From: Tubulanus polymorphus
Taxonomy: Eukaryota > Nemertea > Palaeonemertea > Tubulaniformes > Tubulanidae
Reading direction: 5' to 3'
Assembly (NCBI RefSeq): GCF_964204645.1
Contig: NC_134025.1
Location: 22,536,001-22,600,000, forward strand
DNA length: 64,000 bases
Position 1 is the first letter of the stretch. Each line of letters opens with the position of its first letter. The notes below the pieces were generated by a model. That model saw only the letters and a list, made by a program, of their open reading frames with translations. It did not search any database and had not been told where the DNA came from. This document shows positions 3,720 through 59,682 of the stretch, piece after piece. A program made the translations under genes and the position numbers.

Positions 3720-3960
3720 TTTTGAAGGCGTAGGTCTAGCCATCCTTACTCGGCAGGGATTCAAACCTGATGGTACCGAAACCCTACCACACTAGACCGA
3801 GTGCGCAGCTACATGAGGGGTTTAGATGATGTTATTATTAGCCAATCAGATATCCCATTTTATTTCGGCCCGGGTCTTTTCATTTTAAGTTTTTCCATGA
3901 AATTTGCCTCGGCCATTATATCATAATATTCTAATCGGCAGAAGAGTCATGTGAAAAACT
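3720..3960 (-). mobile_element. one-ended copy of the tRNA-armed foldback element
   Basis: Read on the minus strand it contains the same internal words as the complete copies at 57.2 and 58.8 kb (CTGATTGGCTAATAAT, then a short AT-rich spacer) and one arm ending GGTTTGAATCCCTGCC, a tRNA B-box-like sequence. The opposite arm is missing. Confidence 0.55.
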
Positions 3961-31775: not shown

Positions 31776-33854
31776 GTGAACGGATGGAAAGCGTCCACCG
31801 TGAATATGAATTTCATCGGTTTCAAAAAGTATTTCAAATAATTTCGGAATTAATAAAATTAATCAGTTCTAATTAATTAATTCATTAAATTTCTTTGCGT
31901 GATGGGGTTAATTACATCGACAATGAGTGATATTTAAATCGATAAATCAATAGTGATATTTCATAAAACAGGTTTTTGCTACGAGTCGTTGAACAATTAG
32001 GATTTCGTAGATTGCCGCGAGACTTTCTTCTTCTATCGTCGCATTATTCATGTACGACCGATGGACATAATGATCTGCCGCGCTGAATGATGATGAACGC
32101 TTTATTTTTCCGCGGCGATGTCTAACGTCGTCTTTTCAAACGCGCCATACCAACCCGCGAGTACGATGATGATTGTAATTCAAAAACCTCATTCGCGTAC
32201 ACAAGAGCCCGAGCCCTGATCCTCGTTGACCCAGCTTTCATTCTTTTCCGGGTCGCATTAATAATTCATCAGCCAGTTGTCGATTTTATTAACTTTCCAA
32301 TAATGATTATGCTAATGAGGTTGTTGGTGACTCAGTGAAAAGACCGTTCGCTCTCTCTCTCTAGGCTCTCCGCGTTATCATCGTGCAGCTATTTTGTATT
32401 ACCACCGTGCACGTTGACTAGTTAGATATAACGCGAACATTTTTTCGAGAAATGCGTTCCGAGAAATCGACGACGGAAAAAATGCTCGGATATTTCGACT
32501 AGGAAATTTAGTATGTTTTCGTCGTATTCGGTAAGACGGATCCGAAGGGGTCGTTATGAAGCATTCGATCTAAAATAGGCTCACGCTTTTTTGTGTACAT
32601 TCATAAAGTTCATTAGGATATGCTGATCTGAGAGCGGTGACCTTGGATGAAAACATCTAGGTGAACTAGTGAACCGCAGTAATTAACTTCGGTATTCAAA
32701 ATACAATTTTGAATTTGGTGATTGACCAGCGTATATTATGGTAGAGTATATTATTACTAGTGTATATTATGTAATGTAATGAATTGTGTCATACGATCAG
32801 AATATTTTTACATTTTTTGTCAATGTAGTTTGATTATCATATTCAGTATAACATTAATATTATCAAGTTTCCTTATTTTTGTGTCTTTCCTCATTTTCAT
32901 ATAGATATTTATCATAATAGCCTATTTGAGTTAGTTTAAATCATTTTTTTGAAATTCATTATTTTGTACGTTTGTTCTATCAAATATTCACAATTACAAC
33001 ACAATGCTCTGAATCATGCTCAGGTCTAGGCCCACCTGGTATCGATAATATCTTTTCTTTAGATCATTCCGTTGCGTTTCCAAATGTGTAGTATGTTCCA
33101 TAACGATATCGATGCGATTACTAAAAGATTGCGCAACTGCAATCAAATGGCTGATGCATCGTTCCCAGGGAAACATTATTTGCAGTTTTACAATATGGCA
33201 GATTACTGGTATATTCGTAACATGATGAGGGCATTTTCGTATTTTGATTGCTTTTGGGATGGTTCTGAAGCACTCTGGATGTGAGGGCAGGCACCTGAAA
33301 ATTGTTCATAAATTCTCCATGATATACTTTTGTGATGCCGTAAAAACCGTTACAATAATGTTTATATACATTGATACCTAGTATGTGTTATTTAAGGGGT
33401 TCCCTATGAGTTGATGAACAGTATATCATATATACATATACTACAGTATATGCGTTTCAAAATGACTATGACAATTGAGAATTTCGGTGTTCATTTTGTA
33501 ATGAAATATATTTCATAACTCTTATTTTCTTTTCAATGTCTTTTTGATAATGAATTATGAGTGGATGTGCCCTACACAATCACTATTAGGGCTAGACTGG
33601 TTACCAGTCAATTCAATTCAACTGTGGATATATTCAAATTGAAAATAACTTTATTGATCGTCATTAGTATATTATATTATTCATTGTCGATAATGTCAGG
33701 CAACTTATATGAGTTAGGCGATATATATGCGTTATTCTTCAACAAGGCGTCAATGAACTTTCAAGTTAGTTTTTCGTCATCGATATATATCCTTTTCACG
33801 TTATCGTTTCAACTTTTCTAGGTGAAGAAAATGTAGCCGGCGCAATATGCCAAC

Positions 33855-36800
33855 ATGGTTGAGGAGAAGGAATACATGCCACTATGGTGGGCCGGCGTGC
33901 CCGCCGAACTGTACAAACTACGAGTCGAAGGACGTCTATGCGACATCACGATTGTCGTCGGCAACAGCTTGCGTTACAGCGTACACTCGCTCGTTCTAGT
34001 CAGCGCGAGCAGTCATTTCAAAGCGTCGCTCGACACCGGTTCGTTGTTGCAGGAATACTACCTGCAGGATGCTGACGAGGACTGCTTCAAACACCTGATG
34101 GAATATGTCTACGGACAGAACCTCGTTCTGAATAAAGACAACGTGCACGCGATGCTCAGCACGGCGCGCGCGTTGTTCATCGATTCGGCGATCTCACACT
34201 GCGAGGAGTTCTGCAAACTGTTGCCGCGACACGAGAAGATCGATGCGACTGACGGTCAACAGTCGGCGGCGTCATCGTCGTCGTCGTGCAAGCTGACCGA
34301 TAAATCAGCGTTGAACCCGCCGTCGCCACCCGAGTTCAACAACTCGCTACAACTCGACGCCAGTACGAGTTTCAGCTCGGATTATCTATCCGGTTACGAC
34401 GTCGTCGAGGATCAGAAGGTTCTCGAACGCGGCATCAAACAGGAACCGCCGGAGAATTTTTACCCGGGCGAAAATATCGGTAACGGCAGCAGCTGCGGCG
34501 TCGCGAGCAAAGGATCTGACGTTCACGTGACGTACGAACCGATCACAGTCGGCGGTAAGACGGTCGCGATGCGATCGGTTATTCACGAAAATTTGAATTC
34601 GCGATCGTCGTCACAGTTGCATCATCACGGTCTGAACAAGTACAGCTGCAGTCCGCCGGATCCGGATAAACCGAAGAATAAAACGCTCGAGTTCATCTGC
34701 GCGCAGCTTTCGAATAAAAAGAATACGACATCGTGCGGCGTCGGCGGCGTGGGTCAGGCTGACTCGGAAACGTCGACGAATGACGACGAGAATCACATGT
34801 ACTCGCCGAATCCGTTTTCGCCGATGAAGAACCACATGGAGCTGTCGTGGCAGCCGCAGGGTTTCGGTAATTCGATGCGGTTGTGTTCGTCGTCGCAGAT
34901 ACGTTCGACGCCGACGACGAGTCGGTTCGCGGCGACGGCGGCCGCGGACGTTCCCGTTTCGGCGATCCGTCGCGAAAAAGACAAAAGCAAGTATATCAGC
35001 ACGATTTTGAACCTGCGCTCGCAGAACTCGTCGCCGGAGAGCATGTCACCGCCGATACCGAGTTCGTCGTCGCATTCGATGGACACGAATCCCGTCTGGT
35101 CGACGGAGATCACGCCCAGTATATCGGAGGCGGCGTCTTCGTTTTCGACGGTCACGAACGGGTCGCATTACGCGCCGGCCGGCTGCGCGAATAACGAGTC
35201 TTCTGCGGCGGCGTCTACTTCCGGTTTGGCTAACGGCAGCGCGGGTCACGCGAGCTCGACTGCGACAGGGTCGAACGTCGCTTCGATGAACGCGGCGACG
35301 AATGCCCTCCTCAGCTCCGTCGCGAACCAACAAGCCGCGTTGCAGAGTCTGATGATGAGTATGGCGGGCGGCACGCTGCCCGGACTCTCCGGTCTGATGC
35401 CCGGTAACTTCAACGGACAATTCGGAGCTAATGTTCCGAACACGTCTCAGACGATGGGTACGGGTGCGAACTCCGGTCTCGGTTTACCGCCTTTGCTTTC
35501 CGGTCAGCTTCCGTCGCAGGCGTTGCAATGTTTATCGGCGTTGACGGCGAACGCGCAAGCGCTCGGACAGTTATTGCCGCCGATGCCCGGGTTACTACCG
35601 TCGCAAGTGTTGCCTCAACCGTCGTCGGCTAACGGCGGCGATTCGCCAGCGAACGCGCCCGCCGCCGTCAAATATCAATCGCAAACTTTAAGCTCGACGG
35701 CTCCGGAATCAACGTACGCTAACGTGCCGGACTCTAGTACGGAATCGTGCGCCGCTGCTGTGAATACAACGAATCCGACGCCGGTCGATAATTCGGTCGC
35801 GCACAACACGAACGCCGCGAACCCCGAAACGGCAGCTGTTCAAAACCAAGGAACTTTGTCCGGGTTACTGGGTTTTAATCCGCCCGATACGTTGGCTGCG
35901 AATCAAAATCAACAGTTTAACCAAGCGTTACAGCAGCAAGGTTTGCCGCCGATTATGCTGCCGGCTGCCGGACAGAATCTCATCAACGTTAATATGGCCG
36001 GCGTCAACCCGATGTTGCCGATGGCGCTTTTCATGTTACCGAACGGAAACGCGTCGAACAGCATGATGCCGGGAATCGCGCCGCAATCGTTTTTGCCCGG
36101 CGTTGGACCGAAGATTGAAAATGATAGCAAAATGGAGGACGAAGAAACAGAAGTGGAAAACATGCCGAGTATTCCAGGTATTCAAATCTAAAGAAAACCA
36201 TAATTTTTGCGAACCTTGTTTCACAGACTGTGAGTTTGATTTTGCTCTGGACCCAGTTCTGCAATCGTGAATTAACTAGACCCCTCTTTCACTTTGACAT
36301 TGATCCTTTTTCTGCATTTGTGAGTTTAATCTGACTCCGGATGGTTGCGAGTCAAATTTAGATAGAGTCCAAGTACTTGGAATTTTGACTTCTGTTTAAA
36401 GTCTCAGGTCTATGGAACTGGGTTCCATTCTCAAAGAAATATATAAATGATGCATCCATTCAAATATACTTTCTATGCGATGTATTGTGTGGTTGAAATT
36501 TTCAGAATCAGCTGCAGCGACACTGTTCGATTGTCCGATATGTCACAAACCATTTCCAAATACCAAACAGCGGGCTGTTCACATGCGCATACACTCAAAA
36601 TACGAACACAAACCGTTTGTATGCGACATCTGCGGATTCAGGACAAAGGTGAGCACGATTGACATTTGAAATTCTTTGGATATAGGATGTACTAAGTATA
36701 CATGTATGTTGCATTTCAAATAAGTAATTCCTTTCGCCATATTTCGTATTCTCTTCTATCATATATCATACCCCCGCAAAGAAAAGTAAAGGGGATGTAC

Positions 36801-37342: not shown

Positions 37343-37459
37343 GGGCGGAGTAACACCCGCTGACAACAACCCCTGTGAGAGATAGCATCTTGAGACTCCC
37401 TAGGTATGAAATTACCAGGTGCATGAATAGCTGGGCACTAAGGGTTTGCTAAGGCAGTT

Positions 37460-38145
37460 AAGTTCATACCGTGGTAGTCTCGATTCTGTTGCGTTCGAAC
37501 CCAAGCATGTTCCTACGTTGAAGTTAATAGTTTGATGAAGTCAAAAAATTCAACTACTGTGAGAGTAGTTTACTTATTACTCATTGGTTTTAGATTCTAA
37601 TGTTCGATGCATTTAACCAGTCATTGCTTTCTTAAAAAATGTTTATCCAATCTACAAAAAAAAAACACTTGAAGCAAGTTTGAAGTTTGCATTTACTTCA
37701 GCTTAAAATGCGTTGTTTTATTTCATTTTGTCTGTTGACTTGACATTTTCAAAACATATCACACTCGGCATTCGCATTCGTGTACATAGCTGGATACATA
37801 ACAAGTTCATACCGTGGTAGTCTCGATTCTGTTGCGTTCGAACCCAAGCATGTTCCTACGTTGAAGTTAATAGTTTGATGAAGTCAAAAAATTCAACTAC
37901 TGTGAGAGTAGTTTACTTATTACTCATTGGTTTTAGATTCTAATGTTCGATGCATTTAACCAGTCATTGCTTTCTTAAAAAATGTTTATCCAATCTACAA
38001 AAAAAAAACACTTGAAGCAAGTTTGAAGTTTGCATTTACTTCAGCTTAAAATGCGTTGTTTTATTTCATTTTGTCTGTTGACTTGACATTTTCAAAACAT
38101 ATCACACTCGGCATTCGCATTCGTGTACATAGCTGGATACATAAC
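37460..38145 (+). repeat. exact 343-bp tandem duplication after the BTB gene
   Basis: The segment starting AAGTTCATACCGTGGTAGTC at 37460 is repeated from 37803 and appears identical through GGATACATAAC. Each copy starts with a fragment of the foldback arm containing GCGTTCGAACCC. It lies about 120 bp after the stop codon, so it may form part of the 3' UTR. Confidence 0.9.
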
Positions 38146-55269: not shown

Positions 55270-57230
55270 AACAGTGTGATATTCATCCGAAAAGTCAATA
55301 CAGACATGATATGATTTACATTTCGATCCGGCTTTCTTCTCGAAGATGCTGTATCTCGCTGATCTGTCAGTTGCGAGTTGGATATCAGTTCAGCAATATC
55401 GATTTAGTGGTGGATATTTATATGATAAGTTAAACGAAATGTGAAACTGCTTTGACTGTAGATTTTAAGAATACTGACTGTAGAATCTAACGAGCGACGA
55501 AGCTGTTTGCCTTATACGATGCTTGAGTCTTGGTCTAGGTAAAGTTGCAGTCCCGCCAATACCATCACTTTCAAATATGTGCAAGTGCGGATTGATAGCA
55601 AATGCTACATAAACGAATATCTTCAGAGGGAAAAATTATGAATAAATATATAAAGGAGAATGTACCGAATTAACACTAAACTAAATATGACTAATTTCGG
55701 TTGTGTCTCACAATTTTGCCCTTATGTTGTGGAATTTATCTGCACTATTTTCAGAAATTTTGTTGTAATTAGATACAGGCAAATATTATAAGTATTGATT
55801 CCGGTTTCGTTTGTTATTAACATCAATAACTGCAACATTTCACGCATGTTTCAATATGATGGTTGTAGTAACACGATTTCCTGCTTGCGAATGACCATGG
55901 AATATTTATCATTTCCATTCAGGACATTATAGTCGGTAGTATACATCCCGTTCATCGATGAGTAAGGTTCCGGTATGTTCGGTAAACGCCGCGCCGTCGT
56001 GGGCAGTATCTTTTAATCGGAATTAAAATTTCCTACCGAGAATAGATCGATTTGAATTAGTGTAAAAAGAAATGAAATCGAACATCGATTATTGTGGCGT
56101 GGTTTTTGCTCAAGGTGAAATGTGCTGTTAAGAAAATGAAAAAGATATGGGACGTTTTTATCACCACTCTTCCTTACATTCCGGTAAAACATTGCCTTCG
56201 ATTTGATTTGTATATAAGAAATTGAATGGAAATCAGATAGAGCCAATTTGAGTAAATGATGAATATTCTGAATATTATTTCTTTGGCTTCAGTGAGACCC
56301 TAATTCTTGTACCGTCTGTCAGTGTATCTGTGTGTCTACCTTTCAGCTACTTAGCTTTGTTAATAGTCGGTCAATCTTGATGAAACTTGGGTAAAATGAT
56401 AGTATGGGGTTCAAGTTGTGCAGTGCAAAGAATTTGCCCAGTGCGCCACCTAGCGGCAGAACTAGGCACTAAAAACTCATGTTTTTCAGCGACCTTGAAG
56501 ATAACCTTGAAGATGACCTCATTATTGAGTGGGGCCGAAATTCAAGAGGTCATCTTCACAAAATTTAGCTATTGGCCCTAGAAACAACATATCCAAATTA
56601 ATTGCAATGTGAACTACCGATAATTTTGTAGTTCAAGCCTGAGCCTGAGAGCCGTTGTTGCCTATATACGCCAATTTGTTTTATTCGATTGGAGTCGGGT
56701 GTATGGCAATTTTGTGGAGATTAAATCCTTAATCGCGACGATCTCCGTCCGGTTCACCGAGACAGGTATGGCATCGGTTGAAATTAAATCACAATCCGTC
56801 GTCGCTACGGTTGATTACGGCGATTATTCCCACGCAATAATCTAAACCGGTACATCGCGATTTAACGCTACAGTGAACAAAATTTCCAGTTGTCGTTCGC
56901 TGACTAATGTGACATAAGCTATTCCCGATCGAATGACTGCTTTATCCGGATGCGTGCGAACGCAGAGACTCGCTGAGGACAAATGTTCCACGTCGTGAAC
57001 TGGATGGCTTTGATGACATTTTTCAGTTGCGCTCTCTGAAATACGAGCTCAGCGCCGGATCAAATTTAACTGGCCCTGACTTCCTGACTTGGCTGGGAAT
57101 CAAATCTGATAGCATCAGGACTCTGCCGCTCGGTGGCAAAGTTGTTTAGCTGTCAGCGTCGACTCTGTCACTGGTCTCCTATTTATGTATCGGGTTCAAA
57201 TCTGTCAACCATACCTTTATGATCTCTCCC
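55270..57230. other. intergenic, no gene seen
   Basis: No coding exon supported. A repeat-like segment at about 56280-56600 contains CGTCTGTCAGTGTATCTGTG, GATGAAACTTGG and CGCCACCTAGCGGCAGAACT, phrases common in decayed dispersed repeats and partly shared with BTB intron 2. Confidence 0.4.
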
Positions 57231-57241
57231 CATGCATCATC

Positions 57242-57565
57242 CCCAGCAGGAATTTGAACCTGATGGTATCGCTAGACCGGACATGGCACAAAAACCCTGC
57301 CACACTAGACCGGGTGCGCAGGTACATGTGCAGGTTTGCTGGGAAAAAACCTGCGGCACCAATCAGATTGCTCGTTGTATAATTGCTGAGGCTAATTTCA
57401 CAGATTAGACTATAAATGGGAAAACCCAGGCTAAAATAATAAAACGGATCATCTGATTGGCTAATAATGACATCATCTAATTGCACACTCGGGTTGGTAT
57501 GGCAGGGTTTCGTACCATGGCGAGTGTTGATGCTATCAGGTTGGAATCCCTGCCGGGGTAGGATG
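57242..57565. mobile_element. foldback element with tRNA-like arms, copy I
   Basis: The left arm (57242-57322) and right arm (57484-57561) are imperfect inverses of about 80 bp. The right arm reads TATGGCAGGGTTTCGTACCA, then GGTTGGAATCCCTGCC. The spacer holds AATCAGATTGCTCGTTGTAT and CTGATTGGCTAATAATGACATC, which are themselves weakly inverted. Confidence 0.75.
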
Positions 57566-57569
57566 TCCC

Positions 57570-58805
57570 CATGAAGATCAAATACCCAGCACTTAATAAT
57601 ACCCTCGATGGCATGTGAGTGTATTGAGGGTTCATGTCACTTATCATTTACTGTAGATGAAAATATTTGCTCGAAAATGACAGTTTTTATAGTCGCAGTG
57701 ATTTATTTCATTTTACCACCTAAAACTTATCGGTTTAATGAAATCATTTTGTTCAGGGTTATGAATAATGGATCATCTGATTCTTGTCAGCGAATGAACG
57801 GTTGTCTCCACGCGCAGCGGGCAGGTGTGATAAATCCTTGTTTTAATCGCGCCATAAATCATAATCGTATTAAATGATTAGTCAGCCAGCGGCGTGGGTG
57901 GGTGCGTGCGTGAGTACATGGCGCTGTGATAATGATAACAGCATACTGGATATTCTCATCAATTTTCAATGATACTGATTTAAAGTACGTGGAATGAAAT
58001 AGGAATAGACGTTTAAGTGATCCTCAAAGGCTAGTGAAATAGAAAATTCAGGGAGTGCTTCCTGTTTCTATCCAGGGGGCATTAACCTTATCGCCCAATA
58101 TGGTCTAGAAGTCTTATTGACACCAATAGCCTCTGGGAGCCCTCTTAACCCTCTAAAATTTCAATTTTTAGCCTCTCACTTCGGCTAGGATACGGAGAGT
58201 GACCAATTTTAAGTTCCCATCAATTATTCTAGCCTAAAGCTAGTTTACAATCATTCCTAAAGCTAGTCAGCATGTGAGACTGAAAGTGACTTTGTTGTGT
58301 TGGCCAATTTTTGATTTTCAGAAGTCAGAACGGTGTTCCATTATGTTGTGATGGTCGCATAAATTGTGTAGGTAGCGCAGAATCGTTCTTGAGTACAGAG
58401 ACGAAAAAATCGGGTTGATGTAGTAGTCGAGTATCGAACAAAGTGATTTCCAGCTAGCTAGCTGCAATTTAAGTCAATCAATGATTTCTATCCTACTCAA
58501 TCACGCGATATCTGAGATTGGTTTGTTTCGCTTGTGATATGCAATAAAGATGAAAAACCTTTCCGTGCTTGCTACTCACGAGTCGCGTTGCAGTATTATA
58601 TGGCGTTCGTGCATTTAATTGATTCATAAAATCATGAAGATTCTTGCATTATTAGTATAGAGCTTTAGTGGCCGCTTTCTATATTTTATTACTATCAGTA
58701 GTCTTTCTATATTCCGCATATTATCGGATTTATTATTTTTCCATTCTGATGCGTCTCTGATCTTACTCTCTTGATGTAAGGTTTCATCTGTGGTCGGACA
58801 TTTTC
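57570..58805. other. intergenic, no gene seen
   Basis: AT-rich DNA between the two foldback elements. A 57608-57877 open frame has no splice context or recognisable domain. Confidence 0.4.
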
Positions 58806-58810
58806 ACTAT

Positions 58811-59142
58811 CCTCCCTCGGTAGGGATTCAAACCTGATGACGTTGCTACACTCAGCCACGGCACGAACCCCTGCCATACTAGACCGGGTGTGCAGGTTTA
58901 CCGCACGAAAACTCGCGGCACCAACAATCAGATTGCTTGTTGTATAATCGCTGAGGTAAATTTCACAGAAGAACTATAAATGGCAAAACCCGGGCCGGGC
59001 TTAAATAAAACGGGATTTCTGATTGGCTAAAATGACATCACCTAAGCTGCGCATATAGCTGGGCACTCAGGCTAGTGTGGCAGGGTTTCGTACTATGGCA
59101 ATCTCGATGCCATCAGGTTCGAATCCCTGCTGGGGGAGGATG
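58811..59142. mobile_element. foldback element with tRNA-like arms, copy II
   Basis: Left arm CCTCGGTAGGGATTCAAACC; right arm TAGTGTGGCAGGGTTTCGTA followed by GGTTCGAATCCCTGC, which carries a perfect Pol III B box. Spacer as in copy I (ATCAGATTGCTTGTTGTATA, TTCTGATTGGCTAAAATGAC). Confidence 0.8.
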
Positions 59143-59682
59143 ACATATAACTTGTATTCAAGCTGTGACGAAAGGGACATTTTTCATTTCAGCGTATATA
59201 AAACTTAACTGTCAATGAAACGGTGTAAAATTGTTTCAAAATTCGATAGAATAGCGCATATTCTTTGCCCCAGAAGTGCGATAATTATTCGTTTTACGAT
59301 GTATTTTTCGCGCGGTGGTTTTTTCCGCCGGGATACAGGTTAATGGTTCATTTGCGATGCGTGCGATTAATTTTCGACGGTAATGGCTGTTTCTGCAGTC
59401 GACTAATTCTGTTAGTCTTGATTTATCCGGCTTGATTCAATATTTGTCGCCGGCTTTATATGTTTGGCCCAGTCAGCTTCCCAGGCACCGCCGCACGGTT
59501 GCTGTGTCCACACAATCTTAATCTTTCTTAGCCATTGCCGTACTGGAGAAATTGCATGAACTTATGATTACGCGAGTTCTATGTTGATTCGTCGTATTCA
59601 TTGGAGCAAATATTGAATTTGACCATATGCTGAAAGTCGTAATCCACTGCTTCCGGACGCCTCTGTGAAAGTGTAAGGTCTA

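What the first reader, a model, noticed from the sequence alone, without database searches (positions are those of the whole stretch)
57242..59142. Foldback elements whose arms contain tRNA-type Pol III promoters
Two complete copies 1.6 kb apart each have about 80-bp inverted arms, and the arms carry B boxes (GGTTCGAATCC in copy II). A one-ended copy lies at 3720-3960 and arm fragments in the 37.46-kb duplication. An element with outward and inward Pol III signals on both ends is neither an ordinary SINE nor an ordinary MITE; it could come from inverted SINE dimers or a foldback transposon that captured a tRNA. I do not know of this arrangement under a name.
Basis: partly seen in the sequence, partly recalled or inferred. 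Interest (0 to 1): 0.72.

Follow-up and report, generated by a model that had tools for sequence, protein, structure and literature searches.

The report
Foldback DNA transposon with tRNA-like ends
The two sequences are copies of one short, high-copy "jumping" DNA element that inserts like a cut-and-paste transposon, and its mirrored ends look as though they were built from a shortened serine tRNA gene, an unusual but still unproven origin for transposon ends.

Summary
Copies I (57235-57565) and II (58808-59142) belong to one family: 340-bp consensus, inverted arms of about 103 bp, ends CATCCTCCC...GGGAGGATG. A 27-bp terminus occurs 2,262 times with up to 3 mismatches, against 0 reversed controls. 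Of 60 distinct, well-matching copies, 36 carry a 9-bp target duplication with at most 1 mismatch, against 1 of 3,540 cross-paired controls. The unit length is nearly constant, so the arms move as one unit, not as two SINEs. It is a MITE of foldback type, most like the Mutator-group foldbacks. Read outward, the left arm aligns to tRNA-Ser(AGA) of the same genome, D-arm plus T-arm with the middle missing (score 50.75; best of 5,000 shuffles 33.5); the right arm keeps mainly the T-arm (33.25 against 31.75). B boxes point outward only. A 1.9-kb relative with both ends holds broken PHD-like and protease-like pieces but no recognised transposase. No transposase with these ends was found among the loci examined. 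B boxes are not clearly kept by selection; Pol III activity is untested. New variant of a known kind.

The parts
57227..57234 (.). left target duplication TCCCCATG of copy I (8 bp)
   Evidence: exact repeat of 57566-57573
57235..57565 (+). foldback/MITE copy I, 331 bp, CATCATCCC...GGTAGGATG; 88.5% identical to the consensus
   Evidence: profile E 2.4e-92
57250..57260 (-). B-box-like site, copy I left arm, outward, 9 of 11
57296..57307 (-). A-box-like site, copy I left arm (TAGTGTGGCAGG, 11 of 12), outward
   Evidence: consensus motif recalled
57495..57506 (+). A-box-like site, copy I right arm (TGGTATGGCAGG, 11 of 12), outward
57539..57549 (+). B-box-like site, copy I right arm (GGTTGGAATCC, 10 of 11), outward
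57566..57573 (.). right target duplication TCCCCATG of copy I
58808..59142 (+). foldback/MITE copy II, 335 bp, TATCCTCCC...GGGAGGATG; 92.7% identical to the consensus; no clear target duplication
   Evidence: profile E 8.5e-107
58824..58834 (-). B-box-like site, copy II left arm (GGTTTGAATCC, 10 of 11), outward
58847..58858 (-). tRNA-Ser D-arm-like stretch, copy II left arm (TGGCTGAGTGTA, 10 of 12 to the A box)
   Evidence: alignment made on the consensus arm
58870..58881 (-). second A-box-like site, copy II left arm (TAGTATGGCAGG, 11 of 12), outward
59073..59084 (+). A-box-like site, copy II right arm (TAGTGTGGCAGG, 11 of 12), 43 nt before the B box
59116..59126 (+). perfect B box GGTTCGAATCC, copy II right arm, outward
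3741..3942 (-). one-ended copy: right arm and interior kept, left arm lost
   Evidence: profile 143-339, E 3.9e-45
37406..37506 (+). old, diverged right-arm fragment
   Evidence: E 3.4e-6
37806..37849 (+). old arm fragment 400 bp further on
   Evidence: E 0.003
57082..57127 (+). old terminus fragment upstream of copy I
   Evidence: arm model E 1.2e-4; repeat I2

Best explanation
Each copy is one non-autonomous cut-and-paste DNA element (a MITE of foldback type): about 340 bp, ends CATCCTCCC, arms of about 103 bp, 9-bp target duplication. A transposase supplied in trans recognises the outer ends, cuts out the whole unit and inserts it elsewhere; repair of the staggered cut makes the 9-bp duplication. 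Shown here: unit structure, ends, duplications, copy number, and related elements that share the outer ends but differ inside. Inferred: the transposase, most likely Mutator-like. The outer part of the arms probably descends from a tRNA-Ser gene that lost its middle (about 0.7). The outward A- and B-like boxes are then mostly inherited sequence; they could start Pol III transcripts running out into flanking DNA, but nothing here shows that they do.
For: 9-bp duplication with at most 1 mismatch in 36 of 60 copies (25 exact), cross-pair control 1 of 3,540; 8 bp in 8, 10 bp in 1, none at 11 or 12. Exact CATCC...GGATG ends in 46 of 60. Spans 319-345 bp in 61. Consensus arms differ at fixed places, so the unit travels whole. 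2,262 termini against 0 controls. Related elements share the outer part only. A 1,915-bp element at C2:20531770-20533684 has both ends and inverted arms matching to about 200 bp inward. tRNA-Ser genes of the same genome: T-arm match 19 of 20 columns, the exception an extra C, 0 of 2,000 shuffles as good; left arm with D-arm and T-arm 50.75 against a maximum of 33.5 in 5,000; right arm 33.25 against 31.75.
Against: No transposase tied to these ends: none in the held flanks of 20 of 56 Mutator-type matches, none in 3 of those extended to about 11 kb, no convincing one in 12 of 43 Merlin-type loci. Bounded Mutator-type elements have other ends. The 1,915-bp element has no 9-bp duplication (7 of 9 mismatched), and its 98%-identical 103-bp inner stretch in a Mutator locus (L122) is not followed by these ends. 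tRNA origin: no Rfam match at E up to 5 in 57000-59400; no ARAGORN tRNA in the window; the D-arm piece alone is matched by 43 of 5,000 shuffles; the opposite strand scores 21 and 24.75 (69 and 53 of 5,000 shuffles as good); the gap costs were my choice after seeing the sequences. The 60 copies are best matches to the two window copies; of 18 loci picked by a perfect terminus only 4 showed a second end with an 8- or 9-bp duplication. B-box windows rank 17 and 117 of 330 for conservation.
Confidence: 0.78

Rival explanations
1. An ordinary MITE/foldback whose arms resemble a tRNA by chance; the B box is a coincidence spread by copying. (Rivals are not mutually exclusive; their odds need not sum to one.)
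For: No Rfam or ARAGORN tRNA match; no clear selection on the B box; the same 11-mer is common elsewhere: 6,017 exact copies against 23 reversed controls, and 10 of 10 others fetched, chosen to skip known ends, matched neither this element nor an ARAGORN tRNA.
Against: The match is to one tRNA type, goes beyond the B box into stem and D-arm in the right order and strand, and beats all shuffles.
Confidence: 0.25
2. Two tRNA-derived SINEs inserted head to head and were later copied together.
For: Arms are inverted and carry A- and B-like boxes.
Against: One 9-bp duplication around the unit, near-constant length, matching termini, no tail, tRNA 3' part outermost.
Confidence: 0.02
3. The element is moved by a transposase of another group (Merlin, P-like, KDZ), not a Mutator-like one.
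For: No Mutator-type partner found; 43 Merlin-type and 79 hAT-type matches exist; 8-bp duplications in 8 of 60. The 1,915-bp relative holds pieces that look by eye like a Ulp1-type protease, a cargo that I recall from several transposon groups.
Against: 9 bp dominates; foldbacks with 8-10 bp are assigned to Mutator by the Tetris authors (PMC4079207, passages). 12 of 43 Merlin loci lack the ends. hAT flanks were not examined; P-like and KDZ transposases were not sought.
Confidence: 0.35

Closest known systems
Foldback elements assigned to the Mutator superfamily, such as Tetris of Drosophila virilis (PMC4079207; passages read)
   Same: Non-autonomous, foldback structure, 8-10-bp duplications, partner transposase not found, ends shared with a MITE (DAIBAM).
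   Different: Only three structurally complete Tetris copies were reported; here there are more than two thousand termini, the element is about 340 bp, and the arms carry a tRNA-Ser-like stretch.
MER6/MER6A, a mariner-type MITE with a captured V-SINE (PMC6887750; outline with abstract, and passages)
   Same: SINE-derived sequence spread by a cut-and-paste element.
   Different: In MER6 the SINE part lies inside and has lost its tRNA head; ends are mariner type with TA duplications. Here the tRNA-like part is in the terminal repeats.
tRNA-derived SINEs (recalled)
   Same: A/B-box-type sequence of likely tRNA origin.
   Different: No tail, mirrored ends, fixed 9-bp duplications.

Membership tests
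MITE (non-autonomous DNA transposon) | terminal inverted repeats | tested here: met
   CATCCTCCC ends; arms 91 of 103 columns identical
MITE (non-autonomous DNA transposon) | target duplication of fixed length | tested here: met
   9 bp in 36 of 60 with at most 1 mismatch; control 1 of 3,540
MITE (non-autonomous DNA transposon) | short, non-coding, high copy number | tested here: met
   340 bp; 2,262 termini. A 139-aa stop-to-stop frame runs over copy I; taken as chance, no family search was run on it
MITE (non-autonomous DNA transposon) | autonomous partner with the same ends | tested here: inconclusive
   not found near 20 of 56 Mutator-type and 12 of 43 Merlin-type matches; a 1,915-bp relative has broken frames and no recognised transposase
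Foldback element | long inverted arms able to pair over most of the element | tested here: met
   consensus folds as one long hairpin, -228.5 kcal/mol
Foldback element | tandem repeats inside the arms (Drosophila type) | tested here: inconclusive
   (repeats of 18 bp or more) lists none within an arm; no tandem-repeat program was run
Mutator superfamily | target duplication of about 9 bp | tested here: met
Mutator superfamily | mobilised by a Mutator-type transposase | tested here: inconclusive
   transposases present, none linked to these ends
SINE | tRNA head at the 5' end, tail at the 3' end, variable duplications | tested here: not met
   mirrored ends, no tail, fixed 9-bp duplications
tRNA-derived sequence | significant ordered match to a tRNA of the same genome | tested here: met
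   but no Rfam or ARAGORN match
Active Pol III promoter | Pol III transcripts or TFIIIC occupancy | not testable with these tools
   no expression or occupancy data held

The most novel reading that the evidence does not exclude
A cut-and-paste transposon adopted a tRNA gene as its terminal recognition sequence: TFIIIC binds the tRNA-Ser B box at each end and helps bring the ends together or opens chromatin for the transposase, and thousands of copies have scattered paired, outward-facing TFIIIC sites through the genome.
Probability: 0.08. Interest if true: 0.85.

Novelty: new variant of a known kind. Interest (0 to 1): 0.45.

Why it matters
If the terminal repeats come from a tRNA gene, Pol III-type sequence, normally the mark of copy-and-paste SINEs, became the ends of a cut-and-paste transposon. 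That would give a large, countable set of outward-facing B boxes on which to test TFIIIC binding, read-through transcription and chromatin effects.

Tried and rejected
Inverted SINE dimer: rejected for the copies examined. Inward promoters: not supported. A 4.4-kb pair of ends on C3 looked autonomous, but its flanks are inverted repeats too, so it is an inverted duplication. Five loci with a lone end were followed about 3.5 kb inward. Its two longest frames match no Pfam family and the longer one no solved structure. Of four pieces, one matches the PHD finger at E 4.7e-5, 23.8 bits against a cut-off of 24; one gave only an off-topic match at E 0.054; the two pieces that I read by eye as parts of a Ulp1-type protease gave none. 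Thirty-five places in the genome resemble the longer frame. A 103-bp stretch of its arms is 98% identical in the Mutator locus L122, but the DNA beyond it holds no such end. Mutator, Merlin and hAT domains were sought; ends were tested near 20 of 56, 12 of 43 and 0 of 79. Selection on the B box: not shown. Ten paper searches: no listed title or abstract start describes terminal repeats of tRNA origin. Two papers were opened (PMC6887750: outline with abstract, and passages; PMC4079207: passages); the others were seen as listings. The library lacks most subscription journals. The species was not identified. In one search the nhmmer step gave nothing because its output pipe was cut; redone.

Full report
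What is there. The window is C1:22536001-22600000 of a 267.8-Mb genome in 77 contigs; the species was not identified. Copies I and II are two members of a dispersed family. Searching with copy I gave 1,708 first-look candidates and with copy II 1,926, of which 40 were scored each time. I fetched 59 of the listed places and added the two window copies, 61 in all. Their spans are 319-345 bp (spans of damaged copies are extrapolated). Fifty-five of them give a 340-bp consensus, 88.5-97.4% identity per copy, with arms identical in 91 of 103 alignment columns.

One unit, moved by cut and paste. At the boundaries CATCC...GGATG, 25 of 60 distinct copies have an exact 9-bp duplication and 36 of 60 have one with at most one mismatch; left flanks paired with right flanks of other copies give 0 and 1 of 3,540. 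Eight bp is seen in 6 exact (8 with one mismatch), 10 bp in 1, 11 and 12 bp in none. Copy I has TCCCCATG, 8 bp, on both sides; copy II has no clear duplication. The two arms of the consensus differ at fixed places, so copies inherit both together.

How common. A 27-bp terminus with up to 3 mismatches has 1,098 + 1,164 matches, against 0 for the reversed pattern. Of 18 further loci chosen by a perfect terminus on C1 and C2, 10 showed a second end (up to 8 mismatches) inside the fetched kilobase and 4 of those an 8- or 9-bp duplication. Several share only the outer 27-62 bp with the consensus and differ inside. So there is a set of subfamilies held together by their outer ends, as expected if a transposase recognises those ends.

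A longer relative. C2:20531770-20533684 (L102 with L083) is 1,915 bp long with both ends; its arms match each other to about 200 bp inward, an inner 101-bp stretch at 97%, but the flanks show no 9-bp duplication (7 of 9 mismatched). Inside lie broken frames: a PHD-finger-like piece (E 4.7e-5, 23.8 bits against a cut-off of 24) and pieces that I read by eye as a Ulp1-type protease, for which Pfam and the solved structures gave no match. The longest frame (100 aa) has 35 matches in the genome, so it belongs to a repeated gene. No transposase domain was recognised.

The tRNA likeness. A tRNA-Ser probe matched 30 places with up to 3 mismatches; 12 were fetched and ARAGORN calls tRNA-Ser in 12 of 12. 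Read outward, the consensus left arm matches the T-arm of tRNA-Ser(AGA) in 19 of 20 columns, the exception being an extra C (score 32; highest of 2,000 shuffles 26); the right arm scores 30; tRNA-Ser(GCT) scores 24, matched by 6 of 2,000 shuffles for the left arm and 5 for the right; the opposite strand scores 21, 21 and 14. With a cheap long gap, chosen after seeing the sequences, the left arm takes in the D-arm too: 50.75 against 33.5 at most in 5,000 shuffles, and 4 of 5,000 reach it when only the upstream part is shuffled. The right arm, whose D-arm part is eroded, scores 33.25 against 31.75; the opposite strands score 24.75, reached by 69 and 53 of 5,000 shuffles. Against this: no Rfam match at E up to 5 in 57000-59400, no ARAGORN tRNA in the window, and the D-arm piece alone is reached by 43 of 5,000 shuffles. 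I judge tRNA origin likely, about 0.7, not proven.

The promoter claim. The four arms of copies I and II have outward B-like sites (9-11 of 11) and outward A-like sites at 11 of 12, with starts 43-47 nt apart (motifs recalled). In the consensus only the right arm reaches 11 of 12 at 30-60 nt before the B box, and 117 of 5,000 shuffles do as well; the left arm reaches 10. The arms are homologous, so this is one observation, and only suggestive. Inward, the best B match is 8 or 9 of 11, and the terminal site lies too close to the end for an A box inside the element. Copies do not keep the B box markedly better than the rest (mismatch rate 3.6% against 6.3% overall; window ranks 17 and 117 of 330). 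GGTTCGAATCC is common in this genome for other reasons too: 6,017 exact copies against 23 reversed controls; 10 of 10 others fetched, chosen to skip known ends, matched neither this element nor an ARAGORN tRNA.

What moves it. Nine-bp duplications and long arms point to Mutator-like foldbacks; the Tetris authors reason the same way for 8-10 bp (PMC4079207, passages). The genome has 56 Mutator-domain matches, 43 Merlin and 79 hAT. No end lies in the flanks of 20 of 56 Mutator matches or in 3 of those extended to about 11 kb; 12 of 43 Merlin loci gave only chance-level matches. Mutator copies that could be bounded have other termini. A 103-bp stretch of the 1,915-bp element's arms recurs at 98% in the Mutator locus L122 but is not followed there by these ends. 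The mobilising enzyme is therefore inferred, not shown.

Remains in the window. A one-ended copy lies at 3741-3942, and old arm fragments at 37406-37506, 37806-37849 and 57082-57127 (for the arm model the reversed window gave nothing better than E 3).

Novelty. In ten searches of the held paper library, no listed title or abstract start describes terminal inverted repeats of tRNA origin. The nearest precedent seen is MER6, where a headless V-SINE sits inside a mariner-type MITE (PMC6887750, abstract and passages). I rate this a new variant of a known kind.

Noticed in passing
L143, L149, L152: Other repeats carry an A-box-like stretch directly joined to GGTTCGAATCC (for example GACGCAGTGGTTAG before the B box), as if a tRNA had lost everything between the boxes (by eye).
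   Followed up: partly
L102 with L083 (C2:20531770-20533684): 1,915-bp element with the same ends, holding a PHD-finger-like piece and protease-like pieces in broken frames; its longest frame has 35 matches in the genome.
   Followed up: partly
L122, 3136-3237, and C2:20531770-20533684: A 103-bp stretch, 98% identical, is shared between a Mutator-type locus and the inner arms of the 1,915-bp element; it does not lead to the element's end in L122.
   Followed up: partly
L068, L069 (C3:21508400-21518300): Palindromic, tandemly repeated block (period about 9.3 kb) with a half copy of the element and its flank in both orientations.
   Followed up: partly
L112, L115, L117, L118: Mutator-type loci whose homologous stretches end in CACTAGTCCGGGGG- or CACTAGTCCGCGGG-like repeats.
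   Followed up: no
L101: A receptor-like frame beside a long simple repeat that reads QNRTEQNRTE (by eye).
   Followed up: no
L144: Tandem array of units of about 75 bp, each holding GGTTCGAACCC or a variant (by eye).
   Followed up: no
window 33837-36191: Open frame of 784 aa that begins like a BTB-domain protein (by eye).
   Followed up: no
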